Part shown: in pieces, positions 13,230-24,053 of the stretch
Position numbering within the stretch: the stretch's first letter is position 1
Layout of the letters: the number at the start of each line of letters is the position of its first letter
NCBI GenBank assembly: GCA_030672385.1
Contig: DAOVGN010000094.1
Coordinates: forward strand, 1 to 32,950
Origin: Deltaproteobacteria bacterium
GTDB lineage: Bacteria; Desulfobacterota; B13-G15; RBG-16-54-18
Direction: 5' to 3'
Length of the DNA: 32,950 bases
The notes under the pieces: model-generated
What the model saw: the letters and a program-made list of their open reading frames with translations, nothing else
What the model was told of the DNA's origin: nothing
Databases searched by the model: none
Program-made: the position numbers and the translations under genes

Positions 13230-13276
13230 AAAAAAACTCCCTTTCTGCCTTACATTCCAAAGGAAAAGTGAAGGTT

Positions 13277-13305
13277 ATTATAGGATTTTTAAGGGGGGTT
13301 GTAAA
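13277..13305 (-). promoter_or_regulatory. Sigma-70-type promoter for leuA
   Basis: Minus strand TTTACA - 17 bp - TATAAT. Confidence 0.7.
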
Positions 13306-13332
13306 GGCGTTTAAATATTTTGATAAAACCCT

Positions 13333-13361
13333 TTGACAAGGCCAAAAATATAAGGTATGTT
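13333..13361 (+). promoter_or_regulatory. Sigma-70-type promoter for the tetR-RND operon
   Basis: TTGACA (13333-13338) - 17 bp - TATGTT (13356-13361). Confidence 0.75.
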
Positions 13362-13367
13362 TTATGG

Positions 13368-13386
13368 TGACGGACTCGTCAGTCCA
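13368..13386. promoter_or_regulatory. Interleaved TetR-family operator at the predicted transcription start
   Basis: TGACGGACTCGTCAGTCCA contains the symmetric pattern GACNGACNNGTCNGTC; also TGACG-GACT-CGTCA and GGACT-CGTC-AGTCC as two overlapping palindromes 4 bp apart. Confidence 0.7.
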
Positions 13387-13405
13387 CTTAAAGGGAGATT
13401 ATAAA

Positions 13406-14038
13406 ATGAAGATTACAGATAAAGCAAAGAGAAAAGCACTTACCCAAATGAGGCAAAAACAGATACTTGATGTCGCAGCTCGTGTTTTTTCTAAAAAAGG
13501 ATTTGCCCGTACCCAGGTTGATGAAATAGCAGATCAGGCAGGTCTAGGTAAGGGAACAGTTTATCGGTATTTTAACGACAAAAAGGACCTCTTTCTCTCT
13601 GTTGTAGATAGAGGCATAGAAAATTTAAAGGATTTGGTATTAGAAGCGATGGCAAATGAAAAAGAACCCCTAGATAAGATCAAGAAAGCGATAGAGACAT
13701 ATTTAAGATTTTTTGAGGGACACTCAAACCTTATTGGAATATTAATTCATGAACAGAGTGAGTTTCAAAAGAGGATACAGAAAAGATATTTTGACCGTTA
13801 TTATGAGCACATCAATAAAATGGAAGAGGTATTCAGACAAGGCATAGCCAAAGGTCAGATAAAGAAAATAGATGTCAGGGGTGCGATCGGCATTTTGACA
13901 AATATGCTCAATGGTCTCGTCTATATGTGGCAGATAGAAGGTAGAAAATACCCGATTACAGAGAAGCTTCCTATGTTTTTGAAGATATACTTTACAGGCA
14001 TAGTTAAGGATAGACAGTCGAGAGAGGCTTACATATGA
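13406..14038 (+). CDS. TetR/AcrR family transcriptional regulator (start MKITDKAKRK; the 13364 start would lie before the predicted transcription start)
   Basis: ILDVAARVFSKKGFARTQVDEIADQAGLGKGTVYRYFNDKKDLFLSV HTH domain. Confidence 0.92.
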   Translation: MKITDKAKRKALTQMRQKQILDVAARVFSKKGFARTQVDEIADQAGLGKGTVYRYFNDKKDLFLSVVDRGIENLKDLVLEAMANEKEPLDKIKKAIETYLRFFEGHSNLIGILIHEQSEFQKRIQKRYFDRYYEHINKMEEVFRQGIAKGQIKKIDVRGAIGILTNMLNGLVYMWQIEGRKYPITEKLPMFLKIYFTGIVKDRQSREAYI

Positions 14039-15447
14039 ACTCCCTTAGAAATTTTGTTTTATCGTACAGTAAGATTGGTATTGCTAACGGGGTGAAGTAT
14101 ACAGCTGCACTTGTCTTATTATTTTTTTTACCAATAAATTCTTATGCTGACGAAGCTAAAGTGAACCCAGAGGCACTTACTTTAGAAGAGAGCATCGATA
14201 TAGCCTTAAAAAATAACCCTGCCTTGAAGGCTACCTCAGAAAAAATCATTGGTGCTAAAGAAAAAAGTTGGGAGGTAAAGACTTTGTTTTTGCCAAAACT
14301 TAAAGCAGAATCTTCCTATACCCATCTAAACAAACCTCCGAGTTTAGATTTAGAAGCAGGCGTTCTTACACCACAGGCCCTCTCAATAAAGATCGGTGAT
14401 GATGATATGTATAATGCCCAGGCTGTGGTCCAACAGCCACTCTTTACAGGAGGCAAGATCCTTTCTTTAAATAAGCAAGCAAGAAATAATTTAGAAGCCA
14501 CAAAATATAATTATGAAGGGGCAAAGCAAAATCTAATCTTACAGGTTAAAGAGGCCTATTTTGGGATATTAGTGACCCAAAAGTATAGGGAAGTCTGTCA
14601 GGATGCAGTAGAGCAGATGAAGGCGCATCTCGAGACAGTGAGGGGTCTCTATAACGCCGGTATTGTTCCTCATATCGACCTTTTGAGAACAGAGGTGCAG
14701 TTGGCAAATGCAGAGCAGGCGCTCATTAAGGCTGAAAATGGCGTTGAGTTAGCAAAGTCTCTATTTAACACCATATTAGGTAGAGACCTAAATTCGCCTG
14801 TGAAGGTAGTTGATGTATTTGAGATTATAGAACAAGATTATGACTTAGACCAATTATTTAAACTAGCTCAAGAACATCGGCCTGAGATCTATAAGATGAA
14901 GCACAATATTGAAATGGCCAAGGCTGGTATTGGCGTAGCTCAAAGTAACTACTGGCCACAAGTAGGACTTTTTGGAAACTATAGATACCATAAGGGTGAT
15001 GAGCCTATTGTAGAATGGAGAGAAGACTGGATGGTAGGCGTAAATGTTAGTGTGAACGTCTGGAATTGGGGTGAAACTAAGGCACAGGTAGGGCAGGCAA
15101 AGGCTGCTTTAAGAGAATTAGAACATCTAGAAACCCAACTAAAAGATGGAATTGCTTTGGAGGTAAAGGGCGCCCTATTAAATCTTGAAGAGGCTAAAAA
15201 GAGAATCAAGGTATCAGAGAAAGCGGTAATCCAGGCCCAAGAAAGTCTGAACAGTGCACAAATTGGGTATAAAAATGGTCGAGTAGACAATGTAGAAGTG
15301 CTAGCTGCTCAATTAGCTTTAACTGAAAGCCAGACAAATAATCTTGAGGCAATATATAATTATATTTTGAGCCAGGCAAGATTAGAAAAGGCAACAGGCA
15401 TGCCTGCCGAAGTTTTAGCGAGGGCAGAGAAATCAGGAGGCGAATAA
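14035..15447 (+). CDS. TolC-family outer membrane efflux protein
   Basis: Signal-like N terminus, LTLEESIDIALKNNPALKA, QQPLFTGGKI, VNVWNWGETKAQV; ATGA overlap with tetR. Confidence 0.92.
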   Translation: MNSLRNFVLSYSKIGIANGVKYTAALVLLFFLPINSYADEAKVNPEALTLEESIDIALKNNPALKATSEKIIGAKEKSWEVKTLFLPKLKAESSYTHLNKPPSLDLEAGVLTPQALSIKIGDDDMYNAQAVVQQPLFTGGKILSLNKQARNNLEATKYNYEGAKQNLILQVKEAYFGILVTQKYREVCQDAVEQMKAHLETVRGLYNAGIVPHIDLLRTEVQLANAEQALIKAENGVELAKSLFNTILGRDLNSPVKVVDVFEIIEQDYDLDQLFKLAQEHRPEIYKMKHNIEMAKAGIGVAQSNYWPQVGLFGNYRYHKGDEPIVEWREDWMVGVNVSVNVWNWGETKAQVGQAKAALRELEHLETQLKDGIALEVKGALLNLEEAKKRIKVSEKAVIQAQESLNSAQIGYKNGRVDNVEVLAAQLALTESQTNNLEAIYNYILSQARLEKATGMPAEVLARAEKSGGE

Positions 15448-15449
15448 CT

Positions 15450-16361
15450 ATGAAGAGACCTATAATTTGGGCATTGATAATTTTCTTAGTAGCACTGGGC
15501 GGTTTTAAAATTATTAAGATTATAAGAGGTGATAATGATAAGAGTCAAGAAGAGGTAATGGTTCCCACTGTTAAAGTAGCTCAAGTTATAAAAGGTGAAG
15601 TTGAAGATAAGATATCTTGCGTAGGTAATATTGCTGGCCAAGAAATGGTGACCTTGATGAGCAAGATTCCAGGGAAGATTGATAGCTTTCTTGTTAAGGA
15701 AGGCGATAAGGTAAAGAGGGATGATGTCTTGGTATTGATTGATAGAGATATAGAAGGCATGAAATATAAAAAGGCCTCGATTAAATCTCCGTTCAATGGG
15801 ATAGTAATAAAAAAATTTTTAGATGAAGGTTCCCAGGTTGAACCTAGTGTAAGTCCTATGATGAGGGTTCCAGTAATTATGGTAGCTAATATTGATACAA
15901 TAAAGGTCTTGGTAAACGTCTCTGAGAAATATTTAGGGAAATTAAGAGAAAAAACCGAGGCAAAGATTAAGGTAGATGCATATCCAGATGAGATTTTCCT
16001 TGGTGAAGTTACAAGGATTGCTCCTTTGGTTGACCTTACTACAAGAACTGCTGAGGTGGAGGTAAGGGTTCCTAATAAAGAGCATCGGCTTAAGCCGGGG
16101 ATGTTTGCCAGAGTAAGTATTATATTAGAGAAAAAAGAAGACGCACTCATCGTGCCTATTAAGGCAGTGCTTAATGAGAATGGCTGTAATTTCGTCTTTG
16201 TAGATAATGATAATGTGGCTCATAAAAAAGAAGTAAAAACAGGTATATATCAAAAAGACTCGGTGGAAATAGTTGAGGGATTAAAAGAAGCTGATTGGGT
16301 AATTATCGAAGGTAACTACGGTTTAAAAGACGGCGCTAAAGTGGAGATAAAGAAGGACTAA
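15450..16361 (+). CDS. RND efflux periplasmic adaptor (membrane fusion protein), short form without the alpha-hairpin
   Basis: Lipoyl halves KIDSFLVKEGDKVKRDDVLVLID and IKSPFNGIVIKKFLDEGSQVEPS; beta-barrel LTTRTAEVEVRVPNKEHRLKPGMFARV. Confidence 0.9.
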   Translation: MKRPIIWALIIFLVALGGFKIIKIIRGDNDKSQEEVMVPTVKVAQVIKGEVEDKISCVGNIAGQEMVTLMSKIPGKIDSFLVKEGDKVKRDDVLVLIDRDIEGMKYKKASIKSPFNGIVIKKFLDEGSQVEPSVSPMMRVPVIMVANIDTIKVLVNVSEKYLGKLREKTEAKIKVDAYPDEIFLGEVTRIAPLVDLTTRTAEVEVRVPNKEHRLKPGMFARVSIILEKKEDALIVPIKAVLNENGCNFVFVDNDNVAHKKEVKTGIYQKDSVEIVEGLKEADWVIIEGNYGLKDGAKVEIKKD

Positions 16362-16364
16362 ATT

Positions 16365-19300
16365 ATGAAGTTACCTGAATTTTCTGTTAATCGCTCGGTT
16401 ACGGTTTTGATGTTAATTGGCATCATTGTCGTCTTTGGGATAGTATCCCTATCCAGATTAACAGTAGAGGTTATGCCTGATTTGACCTATCCTACGGCCT
16501 CGGTTATTACCACCTATGGAGGTGCTGCCTCTGAGGATATAGAAACATTGGTTACTAAGTCCATTGAGGCAGCAGTAAGTAAGGTCAAAAATGTCAAGAC
16601 CGTGGACTCTATCTCCCAAGAAGAGATCTCCATTGTAATGGTGGAGTTTGAGTGGGGCACTAATATAGATTTTGCTACCCAGGATATACGCGATGCCATT
16701 GGGGTAATTGAAGAGTTTCTCCCTGAAGATGTAGATAAGCCTATCGTTGTCAAGTTTGACCCATCTCTTATCCCTGTGATTGCCTATGGTATCACTGGAG
16801 AACGGGATTTAAGAGATTTAAGGACCTTGGTTAAGGACCAGATAAAGGACCGTCTCGAGATGGTCGATGGCGTGGCTAACTGTATGATTATGGGCGGAAG
16901 GGAGAGGGAGATTCAGGTAAGGATTGATAGAGAAAAACTTGAAGCACTCAAGATCTCCATTCAGCAGGTGATATCTACTTTAAGACATGAAAACCTTGAC
17001 CTCTCTGGTGGACATATCACCAGGGGCTATACAGAATATCTTCTACGCACACTGGGAGAATTTGAGAACTTAGACCAGATAAGAGACACAGTAATTACTG
17101 TTAGAGACCAAAGGCCAGTATATCTAAAGGATCTTGCCGAGGTCTATGATACCCATACTGAAGTCCGAAACTATAGCCGCACTAATAAAAAGAACGGCCT
17201 CATATTAGCAGTTATCAAGGAATCTGGGGCAAATGACTTAGAGGTAGTAAATGGCGTAAAGAAAAAGCTAAAAGAGATAAAAAAAGACCTTCCCCCTGAT
17301 ATCAAGATATATATTGCCTTAGATCAGGGAAGGATAACTCAGTTAATGATTTCTACTACTGCCAATGATTGTATCTGGGGTGGACTTTTAGCGGTTGTAA
17401 TCCTTTTTTTATTTTTGCGCAATTGGAGGCCGACCTTAACCATTGCCTTGTCTATTCCATTGTCGATTTTAGCCACCTTTATCGCTGTCTATTTCTTAGG
17501 TTATAGCCTGAGTATAATGACGATGAGTGGTCTTGCCTTGGGTGTAGGTATGCTTGTCTCTAACGCCATTATTGTTATTGAGAATATCTTCCGGCATTTA
17601 GAAGAAGGAAAGAACAGAAATCAAGCAGCCATTGTAGGCACAAGTGAAGTGGGTATGGCGATCGCTGCTTCTACCCTTACTACTATTGCCGTCTTTTTGC
17701 CCCTAATCTATGCCACTGGTATTGCGGGAAAGCTTTCGAGGGGGTTGGCCCTTACTGTTACTGCTTCACTTATTGCCTCTTTATTTGTTGCCCTTACATT
17801 AGTTCCAATGATGGCCTCTAAGATATTTAAGAAGGAGAAGTCAAAGAAAGATTATGAACTCCATTTTGGTGAAAGGGGATTTAGTTTCTTAAAAGATTGG
17901 TATAAGAGGACTCTTGCCATTGCCCTTCGTCACCGCATCAAGGTTTGCGTAGTATCTATAGGGGTATTTGCCCTAGGTATGTGCCTTTTGCCTTTTGTGG
18001 GCAAAGAATTTATGCCAGTAATTGATCCAGGGTTAGTTATCGTTAAGGTTAAGATGCCTGTTGGCACAAGTCTTGAGGAGACAGACCGCATAGTTCAAAA
18101 AATAGAAGATATTATGCTTCGCCAGAAAGAAGCCGATGTTTTAGGGTCCTTTACCGGTTTAATGGAGGGGACAAAGTTAGATGTGGCTTTCAGCGGAAGT
18201 GGAATAGGCAATACGGGAGTGAACGAGGCGATGATATTTGCCCACCTGCTTGATAAAAGCAAAAGAAGGCGTTCCAGTATTGAGATACAAGATAGTATTC
18301 GTAAACAATTCCCTCGAATTGAGGGTGCCAAGATAGAATTTATTGATCTGGCCAGGTTCATTACTTCAGGAGGCACAGGCCAAATTCCTATTGAGATAAA
18401 GATATTTGGTAAGGACTTAGCAACACTTGAAAAAACAGCTGATGAGATTATGGCCAAGATAGAACCTATCCAAGGGCTCTATGATATAGATACTACCCTT
18501 CGCCATGGCAAGCCAGAATTGCAATTTGTAATAGATAGGGATAGAGCCTCTCAGTTAGGATTAAATGTTGGGCAAATCGCCTCTGTAATGCGGGCCAATT
18601 TTGAAGGTCAAGTTGCCACTCGCTTTAGGACCGCTGGTGATGAATTTGACCTGCGGGTGCAATATAGAGATGAAGATGCTCAAGACTTTGACGATGTAAA
18701 ACGTGCGGTTATTTTTTCAAGCCTTGGTTCTCAACATCATTTAGAGGATGTAGCGAAGGTTATTGAGGGCAAAGGCCCGGTTAAGCTTTACCGGGAAAAT
18801 CAAGCGAGAAAGACATCTGTTACTGCCAACTTCTCTGGCAGGGATTTAGGAAGCATATTAAATGATATAAAAACCAAGATAAAAGAGATAGATTTGCCCT
18901 CAGGATATTTTGTTGAATATGGCGGTGAGGCAAAACGAATGCGTGAAACATTCGTTGTCTTAGGCTCCGTATTTATTTTGGCAATCTTGTTAGTGTATAT
19001 GATCATGGCTGCACAGTTTGAATCGTTAGTGCATCCCTTTACAGTAATGTTTACTGTTCCCTTTGGCTTGACAGGTGTAATCTTAATACTGCTATTAACC
19101 GGCAATAGTCTTTCCATGGTTTCTCTATTAGGCGTCATAATCCTTGCCGGTGTTGTAGTTAATAACGGCATAGTCCTTGTAGATTACGTTAACCAACTTA
19201 GGGCTAAGGGCCTGAGTAAGGATGAAGCGCTTATCCAGGGTGGAGTTACTAAATTAAGAGCAGTTTTATTAACAGCAGCCACAGCCACATTTGGAATGCT

Positions 19301-19487
19301 TCCTATGGCTATAAGTAGGTCAGAAGGCTCAGAGCTGAGGTCTCCTATGGCCTTGGCAGTTATTGGAGGATTAGTGGTTTCTACCTTCTTGACATTAATA
19401 ATTGTGCCCACAGTTTACAGTATTTTAGATGATATCGCCCATCGAACTAGAAAAAAAGTAAGTAAGAGATTAGTTGGGGAAGAATAA
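16365..19487 (+). CDS. RND-family efflux permease (AcrB/HAE-like), 1040 aa
   Basis: SVNRSVTVLMLIGIIVVFGIVSL, PDLTYPTASV, GLALGVGMLV, VNNGIVLVDYVNQLRAKG, two RND repeats. Confidence 0.95.
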   Translation: MKLPEFSVNRSVTVLMLIGIIVVFGIVSLSRLTVEVMPDLTYPTASVITTYGGAASEDIETLVTKSIEAAVSKVKNVKTVDSISQEEISIVMVEFEWGTNIDFATQDIRDAIGVIEEFLPEDVDKPIVVKFDPSLIPVIAYGITGERDLRDLRTLVKDQIKDRLEMVDGVANCMIMGGREREIQVRIDREKLEALKISIQQVISTLRHENLDLSGGHITRGYTEYLLRTLGEFENLDQIRDTVITVRDQRPVYLKDLAEVYDTHTEVRNYSRTNKKNGLILAVIKESGANDLEVVNGVKKKLKEIKKDLPPDIKIYIALDQGRITQLMISTTANDCIWGGLLAVVILFLFLRNWRPTLTIALSIPLSILATFIAVYFLGYSLSIMTMSGLALGVGMLVSNAIIVIENIFRHLEEGKNRNQAAIVGTSEVGMAIAASTLTTIAVFLPLIYATGIAGKLSRGLALTVTASLIASLFVALTLVPMMASKIFKKEKSKKDYELHFGERGFSFLKDWYKRTLAIALRHRIKVCVVSIGVFALGMCLLPFVGKEFMPVIDPGLVIVKVKMPVGTSLEETDRIVQKIEDIMLRQKEADVLGSFTGLMEGTKLDVAFSGSGIGNTGVNEAMIFAHLLDKSKRRRSSIEIQDSIRKQFPRIEGAKIEFIDLARFITSGGTGQIPIEIKIFGKDLATLEKTADEIMAKIEPIQGLYDIDTTLRHGKPELQFVIDRDRASQLGLNVGQIASVMRANFEGQVATRFRTAGDEFDLRVQYRDEDAQDFDDVKRAVIFSSLGSQHHLEDVAKVIEGKGPVKLYRENQARKTSVTANFSGRDLGSILNDIKTKIKEIDLPSGYFVEYGGEAKRMRETFVVLGSVFILAILLVYMIMAAQFESLVHPFTVMFTVPFGLTGVILILLLTGNSLSMVSLLGVIILAGVVVNNGIVLVDYVNQLRAKGLSKDEALIQGGVTKLRAVLLTAATATFGMLPMAISRSEGSELRSPMALAVIGGLVVSTFLTLIIVPTVYSILDDIAHRTRKKVSKRLVGEE

Positions 19488-19520
19488 TAAAACCTTTTGA
19501 TAGGGGGAAGTCAAGGACAA

Positions 19521-19558
19521 AGTGAACTACCACCGAGCAGGTTCGGTGGTAGTTCACT
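19521..19558. repeat. Perfect 16-bp inverted repeat with 6-nt loop
   Basis: AGTGAACTACCACCGA - GCAGGT - TCGGTGGTAGTTCACT. Confidence 0.95.
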
Positions 19559-19573
19559 GTCAACCCCGTCCGG

Positions 19574-19858
19574 TCACTCGAGGGTGACGATGTTGCCCAC
19601 GCTCAGCGCCCCGCCGGAGTAACAGACCACCTTTGCACTGCCCACACGTACCACGCACCTCGTGGCCTTTTTCGAGAGCACTTGCCGATTAGCAGTTTGT
19701 CAATGCTGTTGTCCTTGACGAGGTGGCGGATCTCTTCCATCTGGTCACATCCAGACCGCGCATGCCCTCGGTGATTTTCAGGATATCCCCGACGCCGAGC
19801 CCCGTCAGGTGGGTGGCCAGGGATATGTCCATGAAGACTTTCGTGTGTGTGCTCATCG
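19574..19858 (-). pseudogene. Small uncharacterised gene (~95 aa if repaired) broken by two apparent single-base deletions
   Basis: Minus strand MSTHTKVFMDISLATHLTGLGVGDILKITEGMRGLDVT | MEEIRHLVKDNSIDKLLIG | VLSKKATRCVVRVGSAKVVCYSGGALSVGNIVTLE*, in three successive frames. Confidence 0.5.
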
Positions 19859-19981
19859 CTCTTCCTGCGGGCACGATCCAGGATGGTGCCCGCCTCCATC
19901 AGCAGGGTATCGCTGATCTCGGATCGATCGGTAAAAGGCCGATCTAGGGGCGGAGCAGCAATTTTTTTGCAATTTTTGACC

Positions 19982-20009
19982 TTGACAAAAGAAAGGAGAT
20001 ATATATACT
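19982..20009 (+). promoter_or_regulatory. Sigma-70-type promoter for the DUF177-rpmF-plsX operon
   Basis: TTGACA (19982-19987) - 16 bp - TATACT (20004-20009). Confidence 0.55.
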
Positions 20010-20083
20010 GATGTCTTTAAATTCGAGGAATATGCAAATCCTGCCGGCGAGAAATTTAGGAAACAGGAGCTTAAGATAATCAG

Positions 20084-21943: not shown

Positions 21944-23107
21944 GTGGACTATTTTTTGACCGAAGACCAAAAGATGCTCAAGGACTTGGCCCGTAGGATA
22001 GCCGAGGATAAGATAATGCCGGTGCGGGCAGAGTTGGATGAAAAAGAGGAGTTTCCTTGGGAGATCATGCGCACTTGTGCAGAGACGGGGCTCTTTGGGG
22101 TCTCTATGCCTGAGGAATATGGTGGTTTTTCCGGTGGAGTGTTCGAGAACTGCTTGGTAGTAGAGGAATTGAGCAGGGCCTGCATAGGGGTATCGGTCAG
22201 CTTTGCGGGGAGTGGATTGGGGGCCTATCCAATTCTGCTCTCCGGCACCGAAGAGCAGAAGAGGCGATATCTTCCCGAGATCGCCAGTGGGAGGAAACTG
22301 GCCGCTTTTGCCGCCACCGAGGCCAATGCTGGAAGTGATGTAGCGGCGATGCAGGTCACGGCGGTGAGAGATGGTGATGGATATAGACTGAACGGAACCA
22401 AACAGTGGATCACCAACGGGGGCGAGGCGGAGATCTATTCTGTCTTCGCCGTCACCGACAAGAAGAGGGGGCCGCGGGGGATCAGCGGCTTTATCGTTGA
22501 AAAAGGGACCCCTGGGTTTTCCTTCGGCAAGAAGGAGCAGAAATTGGGGATTCGGGCCTCGGCCACCAGGGAGTTGGTCTTTGAGGACTGTTGGATCCCC
22601 CAAGGGAACCTCATCGGTGCAAGAGAAGGTATCGGACTCATCATCATCCTGAGGACCTTTGACCTGACCCGGCCAGGGATCGGTGCCCAGGCAGTGGGGC
22701 TTGCCCAGGGGGCTTTTGAGATAGCGGCCAGATATGCCCGAGAGAGGGTCCAGTTCGGGCAGAGGATCATCTCCTTTCAGGCCGTACAACATATACTGGC
22801 CGATATGGCTACGCAAATAGAGGCAGCCCGCGCCTTGGTTTACGCCGTGGCCAGCTACATTGACAGCCATCCTAAAAACTACAGTAAGGAGTCGGCCATG
22901 TCCAAACTCTTCCCCAGCGATGTAGCCATGAAGGTGGCTATAGATTCCGTTCAGGTCTTGGGGGGATATGGATACATGCGTGATTTTCCTGTGGAGAAGA
23001 TGATGAGGGATGCCAAGATCCTGCAGATCTATGAAGGGACCAACCAGATACAGCGCAACAATATCGCCTTGGAGCTCATAAAAGAGATCGCCAGCGGGAG
23101 GAGATAA
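21944..23107 (+). CDS. Acyl-CoA dehydrogenase family protein (GTG start)
   Basis: DYFLTEDQKMLKDLARRIAEDKI, TEANAGSDVAAM, LGGYGYMRDFPVEKMMRDAKILQIYEGTNQIQRN (catalytic-type Glu retained). Confidence 0.95.
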   Translation: MDYFLTEDQKMLKDLARRIAEDKIMPVRAELDEKEEFPWEIMRTCAETGLFGVSMPEEYGGFSGGVFENCLVVEELSRACIGVSVSFAGSGLGAYPILLSGTEEQKRRYLPEIASGRKLAAFAATEANAGSDVAAMQVTAVRDGDGYRLNGTKQWITNGGEAEIYSVFAVTDKKRGPRGISGFIVEKGTPGFSFGKKEQKLGIRASATRELVFEDCWIPQGNLIGAREGIGLIIILRTFDLTRPGIGAQAVGLAQGAFEIAARYARERVQFGQRIISFQAVQHILADMATQIEAARALVYAVASYIDSHPKNYSKESAMSKLFPSDVAMKVAIDSVQVLGGYGYMRDFPVEKMMRDAKILQIYEGTNQIQRNNIALELIKEIASGRR

Positions 23108-24053
23108 TGGGAAAGACGGCCTTTATCTTTCCCGGACAGGGTTCTCAATATGTGGGGATGGGGAAGGAGCTATACGAAAATTTCTCTGCTGCTAGGGAGA
23201 CTTTTGCTGAGGCCAACGAGGCCCTGGAATTTGACCTCCAGAACCTCTGTTTTCATGGTCCAGAGGAGAATTTAAGGTTGACCGTCAACACTCAGCCCTC
23301 CGTCCTGACCGTGAGCATCGCTGCTTTAAGGGTCTTAAGGGAAGAGCTGGGGTGGAAAGCCGACTACCTTGCTGGACACAGCCTCGGGGAGTTCACCGCC
23401 TTAGTAGCGGCCGAGTCGATGAGTTTTCGTGATGCCGCCAGGGTGGTCAGATTGAGGGGAAAGTTTATGCAGGAGGCGGTTCCTGTGGGTGAGGGGGGAT
23501 GGCGGCGGTCTTAGGTATGGACAGGGATCGGGTGGAGGAAATCTGCCAGAAGGTAGCGCAGGGGAAGGTCCTCACCACCGCCAATTTTAATTCACCCGGC
23601 CAGATAGTGATCTCCGGACATATGGAGGCCATCGAGAGGGCAATTGCCTTGGCCAAGGAGATGGGTGCGAAGAGGGCCGTTCTGCTTGAGGTAAGTGCGC
23701 CCTTTCATTCCCCCCTGATGGTGGTTGCTGGTCAAAAGCTGGGAGTGGAATTGGCCAAGGTAGAGGTCAATGAATTGAAGGTCCCCGTGGTGACCAATGT
23801 TGAGGCCGAGGCAAACCTTGCCAAGGATAGGGTGTGGGATCTTCTGGTCCGGCAGATGAGCAGCCCGGTGAGATGGGAGGAGTCAATACACAAGATGATA
23901 GGGTTGGGGGTGGAGAGGTTTGTGGAAATAGGGCCGGGGAAGGTGCTTTCGGGTTTGATACGCCGCATAGATGGACAAAAGGAGGTCCTTAATCTGGAGG
24001 ACCCAATGGGCCTGGATAAATTGAAGAATCTTGCAAAAAGCCCTTCAGCATGA
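23107..24053 (+). CDS. fabD: Malonyl-CoA-ACP transacylase FabD, split into two ORFs by an apparent -1 indel in a G6 run (23493-23498)
   Basis: FIFPGQGSQYVGMGKELYE, LAGHSLGEFTALVAAESM, then a frame change at GEGG|MAAVLGMD, NFNSPGQIVISGH, APFHSPLM. Confidence 0.92.

What the first reader, a model, noticed from the sequence alone, without database searches (positions are those of the whole stretch)
16365..19487. RND pump lacking the canonical proton-relay Asp pair and Lys
TM4 reads SLSIMTMSGLALGVGMLVSNAIIVIENI. It aligns without gaps to AcrB [28 protein letters not shown], so D407/D408 become S399/N400 (codons tct aac at 17559-17564). The TM10 Lys (AcrB K940) becomes N933 (VVNNGIVLVDYVN), while the TM11 region keeps R and T (KLRAVLLT). 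The ORF is full length with no decay, so this looks like a functional pump with an altered coupling site (other ion, other carboxylate, or non-proton transport). Some RND subfamilies vary here, so novelty is uncertain.
Basis: partly seen in the sequence, partly recalled or inferred. Interest (0 to 1): 0.68.

Follow-up and report, generated by a model that had tools for sequence, protein, structure and literature searches.

The report
Efflux pump missing its proton-binding aspartate
This is an intact, horizontally acquired three-part drug-efflux-type pump whose motor site has lost the one acidic residue that nearly all its relatives use to pick up protons; the loss is kept across seven genomes, so the pump is probably working but powered or gated in an unknown way.

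Summary
The 1040-aa RND permease (16365-19487) has Ser399-Asn400 where AcrB has D407-D408, and Asn933 where it has K940. Two of the three changes are ordinary: N at 408 and N at 940 are the norm in this subfamily (LVDNAIVVIEN / VVNNAIV), which works with a single Asp at 407.

All three changes are shared by the seven full-length clade members (six relatives at 64-89% identity, mostly labelled Omnitrophota), with dN/dS about 0.06-0.09 and Ser encoded by both TCY and AGT. So this is not decay or a sequencing error. No compensating carboxylate appears in the membrane core.

D407 was lost at least three times (this clade, one Bacillota pump, a deep clade with T/A/N-N). R971K+P974A accompany the loss in this clade and in part of the deep one.

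The operon (TetR-TolC-hairpinless adaptor-RND) is a 40% GC island in 53% GC DNA, hence laterally acquired. It holds the genome's only RND pump gene, arguing against a heterotrimer partner.

Best reading: a functional exporter whose coupling does not use TM4 Asp protonation. The actual energy source is undetermined.

The parts
16365..19487 (+). RND permease (ACR_tran), 1040 aa, Asp-less relay
   Evidence: full-length Pfam match, AlphaFold model matching CmeB/CusA/AcrB structures (TM-score 0.82-0.89)
17559..17564 (+). S399-N400 (AcrB D407-D408), codons TCT AAC
   Evidence: Ser in all seven full-length clade members, Asp in 85 of 85 comparison sequences
17580..17582 (+). E406 (AcrB E414), retained acidic residue of the GX3DX6E motif
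   Evidence: acidic in 100% of relatives
17367..17369 (+). D335, clade-specific acidic residue near the periplasmic end of TM2 (AcrB position 343); candidate, unproven
   Evidence: D in 7 of 7 clade members, mostly N/A/T/S outside
19161..19166 (+). N933-N934 (AcrB K940-N941); Asn at 940 is the subfamily norm
19182..19184 (+). D940 (AcrB E947), retained
19251..19262 (+). K963...A966 (AcrB R971, P974): clade-specific TM11 changes
19272..19274 (+). T970 (AcrB T978), retained
15450..16361 (+). Periplasmic adaptor (MFP) without the alpha-hairpin, BesA-like
   Evidence: best solved relative 4kks (BesA); hairpin segment present in AcrA and L036 is missing
14035..15447 (+). TolC-family outer-membrane channel
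   Evidence: OEP, 232 bits
13364..14038 (+). TetR-family regulator, first gene of the operon
13230..19500 (.). Low-GC island (about 40% versus 53.5% in the rest of the window) carrying the whole operon
   Evidence: flanking genes not shared with relatives

Best explanation
A functional, TetR-regulated tripartite RND exporter, acquired horizontally as an operon. It descends from the single-Asp (LVDN) HAE-type subfamily but has lost the last titratable TM4 carboxylate (D407->S) and re-tuned TM11 around it (R971->K, P974->A). It most likely still cycles as a pump by the usual alternating access. The trigger is not protonation of a TM4 Asp. The neutral polar S399/N400/N933/N934 cluster and the retained E406-K963 pair on the cytoplasmic side (AcrB E414-R971) are the most likely substitute switch, driven by H+ at E406/D940/K963 or by another cation. 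SHOWN: residues, conservation, purifying selection, fold, operon, GC island with unshared flanks, absence of a partner pump gene. INFERRED: that it transports, that it is energised at all, and which ion or residue does it.
For: Full-length ORF with complete operon. AlphaFold model (pLDDT 82) superposes on solved RND pumps at TM-score 0.82-0.89. Triple change S399/K963/A966 invariant in seven full-length genes of 64-89% identity. dN/dS 0.06-0.085; Ser399 as TCY in six and AGT in L036, so Ser itself is probably selected. Only 6 of 96 near-invariant columns changed in the whole clade, four of them around the relay in TM4/TM11 (positions 407, 411, 971, 974). R971K+P974A recurs in other Asp-less pumps: a TM11-pattern search blind to TM4 hit this gene, an A-N family (G019, G091; G056 fragment with TM4 missing), a T-N gene (G058) and one exception with Asp, G196. 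The same K/A pair is in G398's A-N gene. E406 is 100% acidic in relatives.
Against: In AcrB and MexB the D407, D408 and (AcrB) R971 substitutions reported in the papers read abolished efflux (PMC4359379, PMC5719797, PMC8277102), so a pump without them could be inactive as a secondary transporter. No new carboxylate was found in the core. Association of R971K with D407 loss rests on about three independent losses and is not significant on the tree (sign test median p 0.5). Clustering of changes at the literature-listed relay sites is weak statistically (P 0.12).
Confidence: 0.5

Rival explanations
1. Uncoupled exporter: the membrane domain no longer harvests an ion gradient, and the complex works as a gated conduit driven by the substrate gradient or by substrate binding alone.
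For: The residues shown to be essential for proton coupling in AcrB (D407, D408, K940, R971) are all different here. Different Asp-less lineages changed the rest of the site in different ways (T978 to I, S or A; R971 kept or K), as expected if coupling is relaxed.
Against: The transmembrane site is not free to drift: Ser399, K963, A966, T970, E406, N934 are invariant in the clade and dN/dS is very low. A passive conduit would be expected to be under less constraint.
Confidence: 0.25
2. Na+-coupled (or other cation) pump: S399-N400-N933-N934 with the G395 backbone bulge form a carboxylate-free cation site.
For: The site is all neutral oxygen ligands. Na+-driven members exist in the superfamily (PMC8277102 states proton or sodium motive force). 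The pattern S/T-N recurs in several Asp-less genes.
Against: The S/T bias is partly built into the search pattern; other finds also include A-N and N-N, and Ala is not a side-chain Na+ ligand. No direct Na+ evidence.
Confidence: 0.13
3. Degenerate subunit of a heterotrimer (as in MdtB2C, where the relay matters more in one type of subunit), energised by a partner RND protein with intact Asp.
For: MdtB and MdtC tolerate relay mutations differently (PMC4338810). Some clade genomes (G395, G396, G397, G400) carry further Asp-containing RND genes.
Against: G000 and G399 have a single ACR_tran RND gene, the other G000 hit being SecD. G000 is 93% complete, so a missed partner is possible but unlikely in both.
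Confidence: 0.07
4. Inactive remnant or pseudogene, or assembly/sequencing error.
For: Loss of an essential residue alone would suggest it.
Against: Seven full-length genes in separate assemblies, dN/dS under 0.09, intact operon.
Confidence: 0.03

Closest known systems
Single-Asp HAE-type RND permeases of Elusimicrobia / Deltaproteobacteria (TM4 LVDNAIVVIEN, TM10 VVNNGIV)
   Same: About 50% identity over the whole length, same N at 408 and 940, same short adaptor in those examined
   Different: They keep D407, R971 and P974; the window clade has S, K, A
E. coli AcrB (HAE-1)
   Same: Fold, topology, E414, N941, R973, T978, G403
   Different: D407S, D408N, K940N, R971K, P974A; no acidic residue at the 407/408 proton site
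AcrB D407N laboratory variant
   Same: TM4 Asp neutralised
   Different: In AcrB this is a loss-of-function mutation (PMC4359379); here the neutral residue is the fixed natural state
CusA/CzcA (HME)
   Same: Single TM4 Asp plus Glu motif in the ancestral state; moderate HMM score (545 bits to TIGR00914, below its 701 cut-off)
   Different: CusA keeps D at 407
Borrelia BesABC
   Same: Adaptor without alpha-hairpin; BesA (4kks) is the nearest solved adaptor (PMC3807786)
   Different: BesB relay residues were not examined here
Deep Asp-less RND clade found here (L121-L126, L167, L168, L170, L171; TM4 T/A/N-N)
   Same: No Asp at 407/408; some members also have R971K+P974A
   Different: Only about 27-37% identical, separate branch of the tree, so the loss is independent

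Membership tests
ACR_tran (Pfam PF00873), RND permease fold | Full-length HMM match above gathering score; RND fold | tested here: met
   856 bits versus cut-off 28; Foldseek to RND pumps, E down to 1.7e-69
HAE-1/HME proton-driven RND pump | TM4 motif G403-X3-D407-X6-E414, reported highly conserved in HAE1/HME (PMC2891726) | tested here: not met
   G395 and E406 present, D407 is Ser
HAE-1 (AcrB-like) | D408 and K940 | tested here: not met
   N400 and N933, but this is shared by most of its subfamily
HAE-1 (AcrB-like) | R971 and T978 in TM11 | tested here: not met
   T970 kept, R971 is K963
HAE-1 / HME curated models (NCBIfam) | Score above NF033617, TIGR00915 or TIGR00914 cut-off | tested here: not met
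   739/1250, 454/940, 545/701 bits
Tripartite RND efflux operon | Adaptor and TolC genes adjacent, same strand | tested here: met
MdtBC-type heterotrimer | A second RND permease gene in operon or genome | tested here: not met
   G000 and G399 have one
Ion-coupled transporter | Transport driven by H+ or Na+ gradient | not testable with these tools
   needs proteoliposome or cell assays

The most novel reading that the evidence does not exclude
A natural, conserved group of RND exporters that run without any TM4 relay aspartate, using a rebuilt TM4/TM10/TM11 site (S/T/A-N, N-N, K-x-R-A) coupled to a different residue or ion. This would show that the 'essential' aspartate of the RND motor has been dispensed with more than once in evolution.
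Probability: 0.5. Interest if true: 0.75.

Novelty: new variant of a known kind. Interest (0 to 1): 0.55.

Why it matters
The TM4 aspartate is described as essential for energy conversion in the RND pumps studied. A selected natural lineage without it, with a recurrent accompanying TM11 change, offers a test of whether RND pumps can be driven by another residue or ion, or can work without ion coupling. I found no description of such pumps in the held literature, but most subscription papers are not held.

Tried and rejected
Pseudogene or error: rejected (dN/dS, seven genes). Heterotrimer partner: no second RND gene in G000 or G399. Replacement carboxylate in the core: none found; D335 at the periplasmic end of TM2 is the only clade-specific acid and looks peripheral. 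The hypothesis that the K940/D408 losses are special: rejected as subfamily norm. Statistical proof of D407/R971 co-evolution: only about 3 independent losses, sign test not significant; clustering test P 0.12. Plasmid collection: no close relatives, best 38%. TM4-pattern hits in Omnitrophota other than the clade and G217 (L114) were judged TM10 matches from their motif and position, and set aside.

Full report
CHECK. The ORF at 16365-19487 (+) is a complete 1040-aa RND permease at the end of a TetR-TolC-adaptor-RND operon. Aligned with E. coli AcrB, MdtB, MdtC, CusA and about 120 homologues, S399/N400 occupy AcrB D407/D408, N933 occupies K940, T970 occupies T978. The stated codons are correct. 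One correction: the Arg in KLRAVLLT is AcrB R973. R971, the residue described as affecting the pKa of the carboxylates and lying on the proton release path (PMC8277102, PMC5719797), is K963 here, and P974 is A966.

WHAT IS ORDINARY. In the permease's own subfamily the TM4 motif is LVDNAIVVIEN and TM10 is VVNN(G/A)IV: Asn at 408 and at 940 is the norm, and such pumps have one acidic residue at the site. This agrees with published remarks that D408 is less conserved and that many members have a single protonation site (PMC5719797).

WHAT IS NOT ORDINARY. D407 belongs to the motif GX3DX6E, reported present in all 254 Burkholderia sequences examined (PMC2891726). It is Asp in 85 of 85 comparison sequences here (L100 and two other Asp-less genes were left out of that set, see below) and Ser in all seven full-length clade members. 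The clade comprises the window gene, L033, L034, L035, L037, L048 (87-89% identity) and L036 (64%); L074 is a fragment covering TM10-TM11 only. Of 96 columns at least 95% conserved outside the clade, only six changed throughout it: D407S, V411I, R971K, P974A, and two others. Four lie around the relay in TM4/TM11. The formal enrichment for the literature-listed sites is weak (P 0.12) and the choice was made after seeing the data. dN/dS among the close members is 0.06-0.085, and Ser399 is TCY in six genes but AGT in L036. The protein is maintained by selection, and probably so is the serine. No new acidic residue appears in the membrane core; the only clade-specific acid is D335 near the periplasmic end of TM2.

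RECURRENCE. A TM4 pattern search of 395 genomes of the window's phylum hit eight genomes; one (G217) was a TM10 match, the other seven are Asp-less RND genes, the window's own included. In 193 genomes of the phylum of G402 (an Omnitrophota-labelled genome) the true TM4 hits were only this clade. In 200 genomes around G401 (Bacillota) only G401 itself hit. These patterns allow only certain replacement residues, so the counts are lower bounds. On a tree built without the trait columns, D407 was lost at least three times: this clade, L100 (Bacillota), and a deep clade with T/A/N followed by N. A TM11 pattern (K-x-R-A) that ignores TM4 found the window gene, G058 (T-N), G019 and G091 (A-N), G056 (fragment, TM4 not covered) and one exception with Asp (G196). 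G398's A-N gene also has K-x-R-A. R971K+P974A thus tends to accompany Asp loss, but independent events are too few to prove it.

CONTEXT. The operon is a 40% GC island in 53.5% GC surroundings with low GC3. Close relatives share the operon at about 57-89% per gene but not the flanking genes (L036 is lower outside the permease). Lateral acquisition is the natural reading. The host genome, like G399 with the same gene, has no other ACR_tran pump: the second weak hit in G000 is SecD. This argues against a heterotrimer partner of the MdtB2C kind (PMC4338810). The adaptor lacks the alpha-hairpin, as in BesA of Borrelia (PMC3807786).

STRUCTURE. AlphaFold2 on a 35-sequence alignment gives mean pLDDT 81.9 and a standard RND protomer, best matching CmeB, CusA, AcrD and AcrB.

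MECHANISM. In AcrB, D407N, D408N, K940A and R971A variants lose proton translocation and efflux, and R971 sits near E414/N415 in the engaged state (PMC4359379). Here the acid and the K940 partner are gone, R971 is Lys, while E414 (E406), N941 (N934), R973, T978 and E947 (D940) remain. My preferred reading (0.5) is a working exporter with coupling moved away from TM4 Asp, for example to the E406/K963 pair or a neutral cation site. An uncoupled conduit (0.25), a Na+ site (0.13) and a heterotrimer (0.07) are rivals. Shown: sequence, conservation, selection, fold, operon, island. Inferred: transport, coupling, ion.

VERDICT. A new variant of a known kind: a conserved RND pump branch without the canonical relay aspartate. 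Not a new fold or system.

Noticed in passing
window 13230-19500: The whole efflux operon is a low-GC island (about 40%) in 53.5% GC DNA, with best relatives in genomes mostly labelled Omnitrophota. Carrier genomes were drawn in the sample of the phylum of G402 (Omnitrophota-labelled) but not in the sample around the window's own genome, so transfer may have crossed phyla.
   Followed up: partly
window 15450-16361: Adaptor protein lacks the alpha-hairpin that normally docks TolC (BesA-like); the relatives with Asp that were examined (L042, L047, L051) lack it too, while L036's adaptor has it.
   Followed up: partly
window 23107-24053: FabD-like sequence split into two overlapping frames (23107-23514 and 23499-24053), an apparent frameshift or assembly error.
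   Followed up: no
window 19488-20083: GC-rich non-coding stretch with a perfect 16-bp inverted repeat (about 19521-19558) directly after the pump gene, possibly a terminator or the border of the transferred segment; the rest may be decayed coding sequence.
   Followed up: no
L100:506-3676: Bacillota RND pump with LVSN in TM4 and a Glu next to T978 in TM11 (PIMETT instead of PILMTT), a possible relocated carboxylate.
   Followed up: partly
L121, L122, L123, L124, L125, L126, L167, L168, L170, L171: A deep branch of RND permeases in several taxa entirely without Asp at 407/408 (T/A/N-N), with T978 also changed in some.
   Followed up: partly
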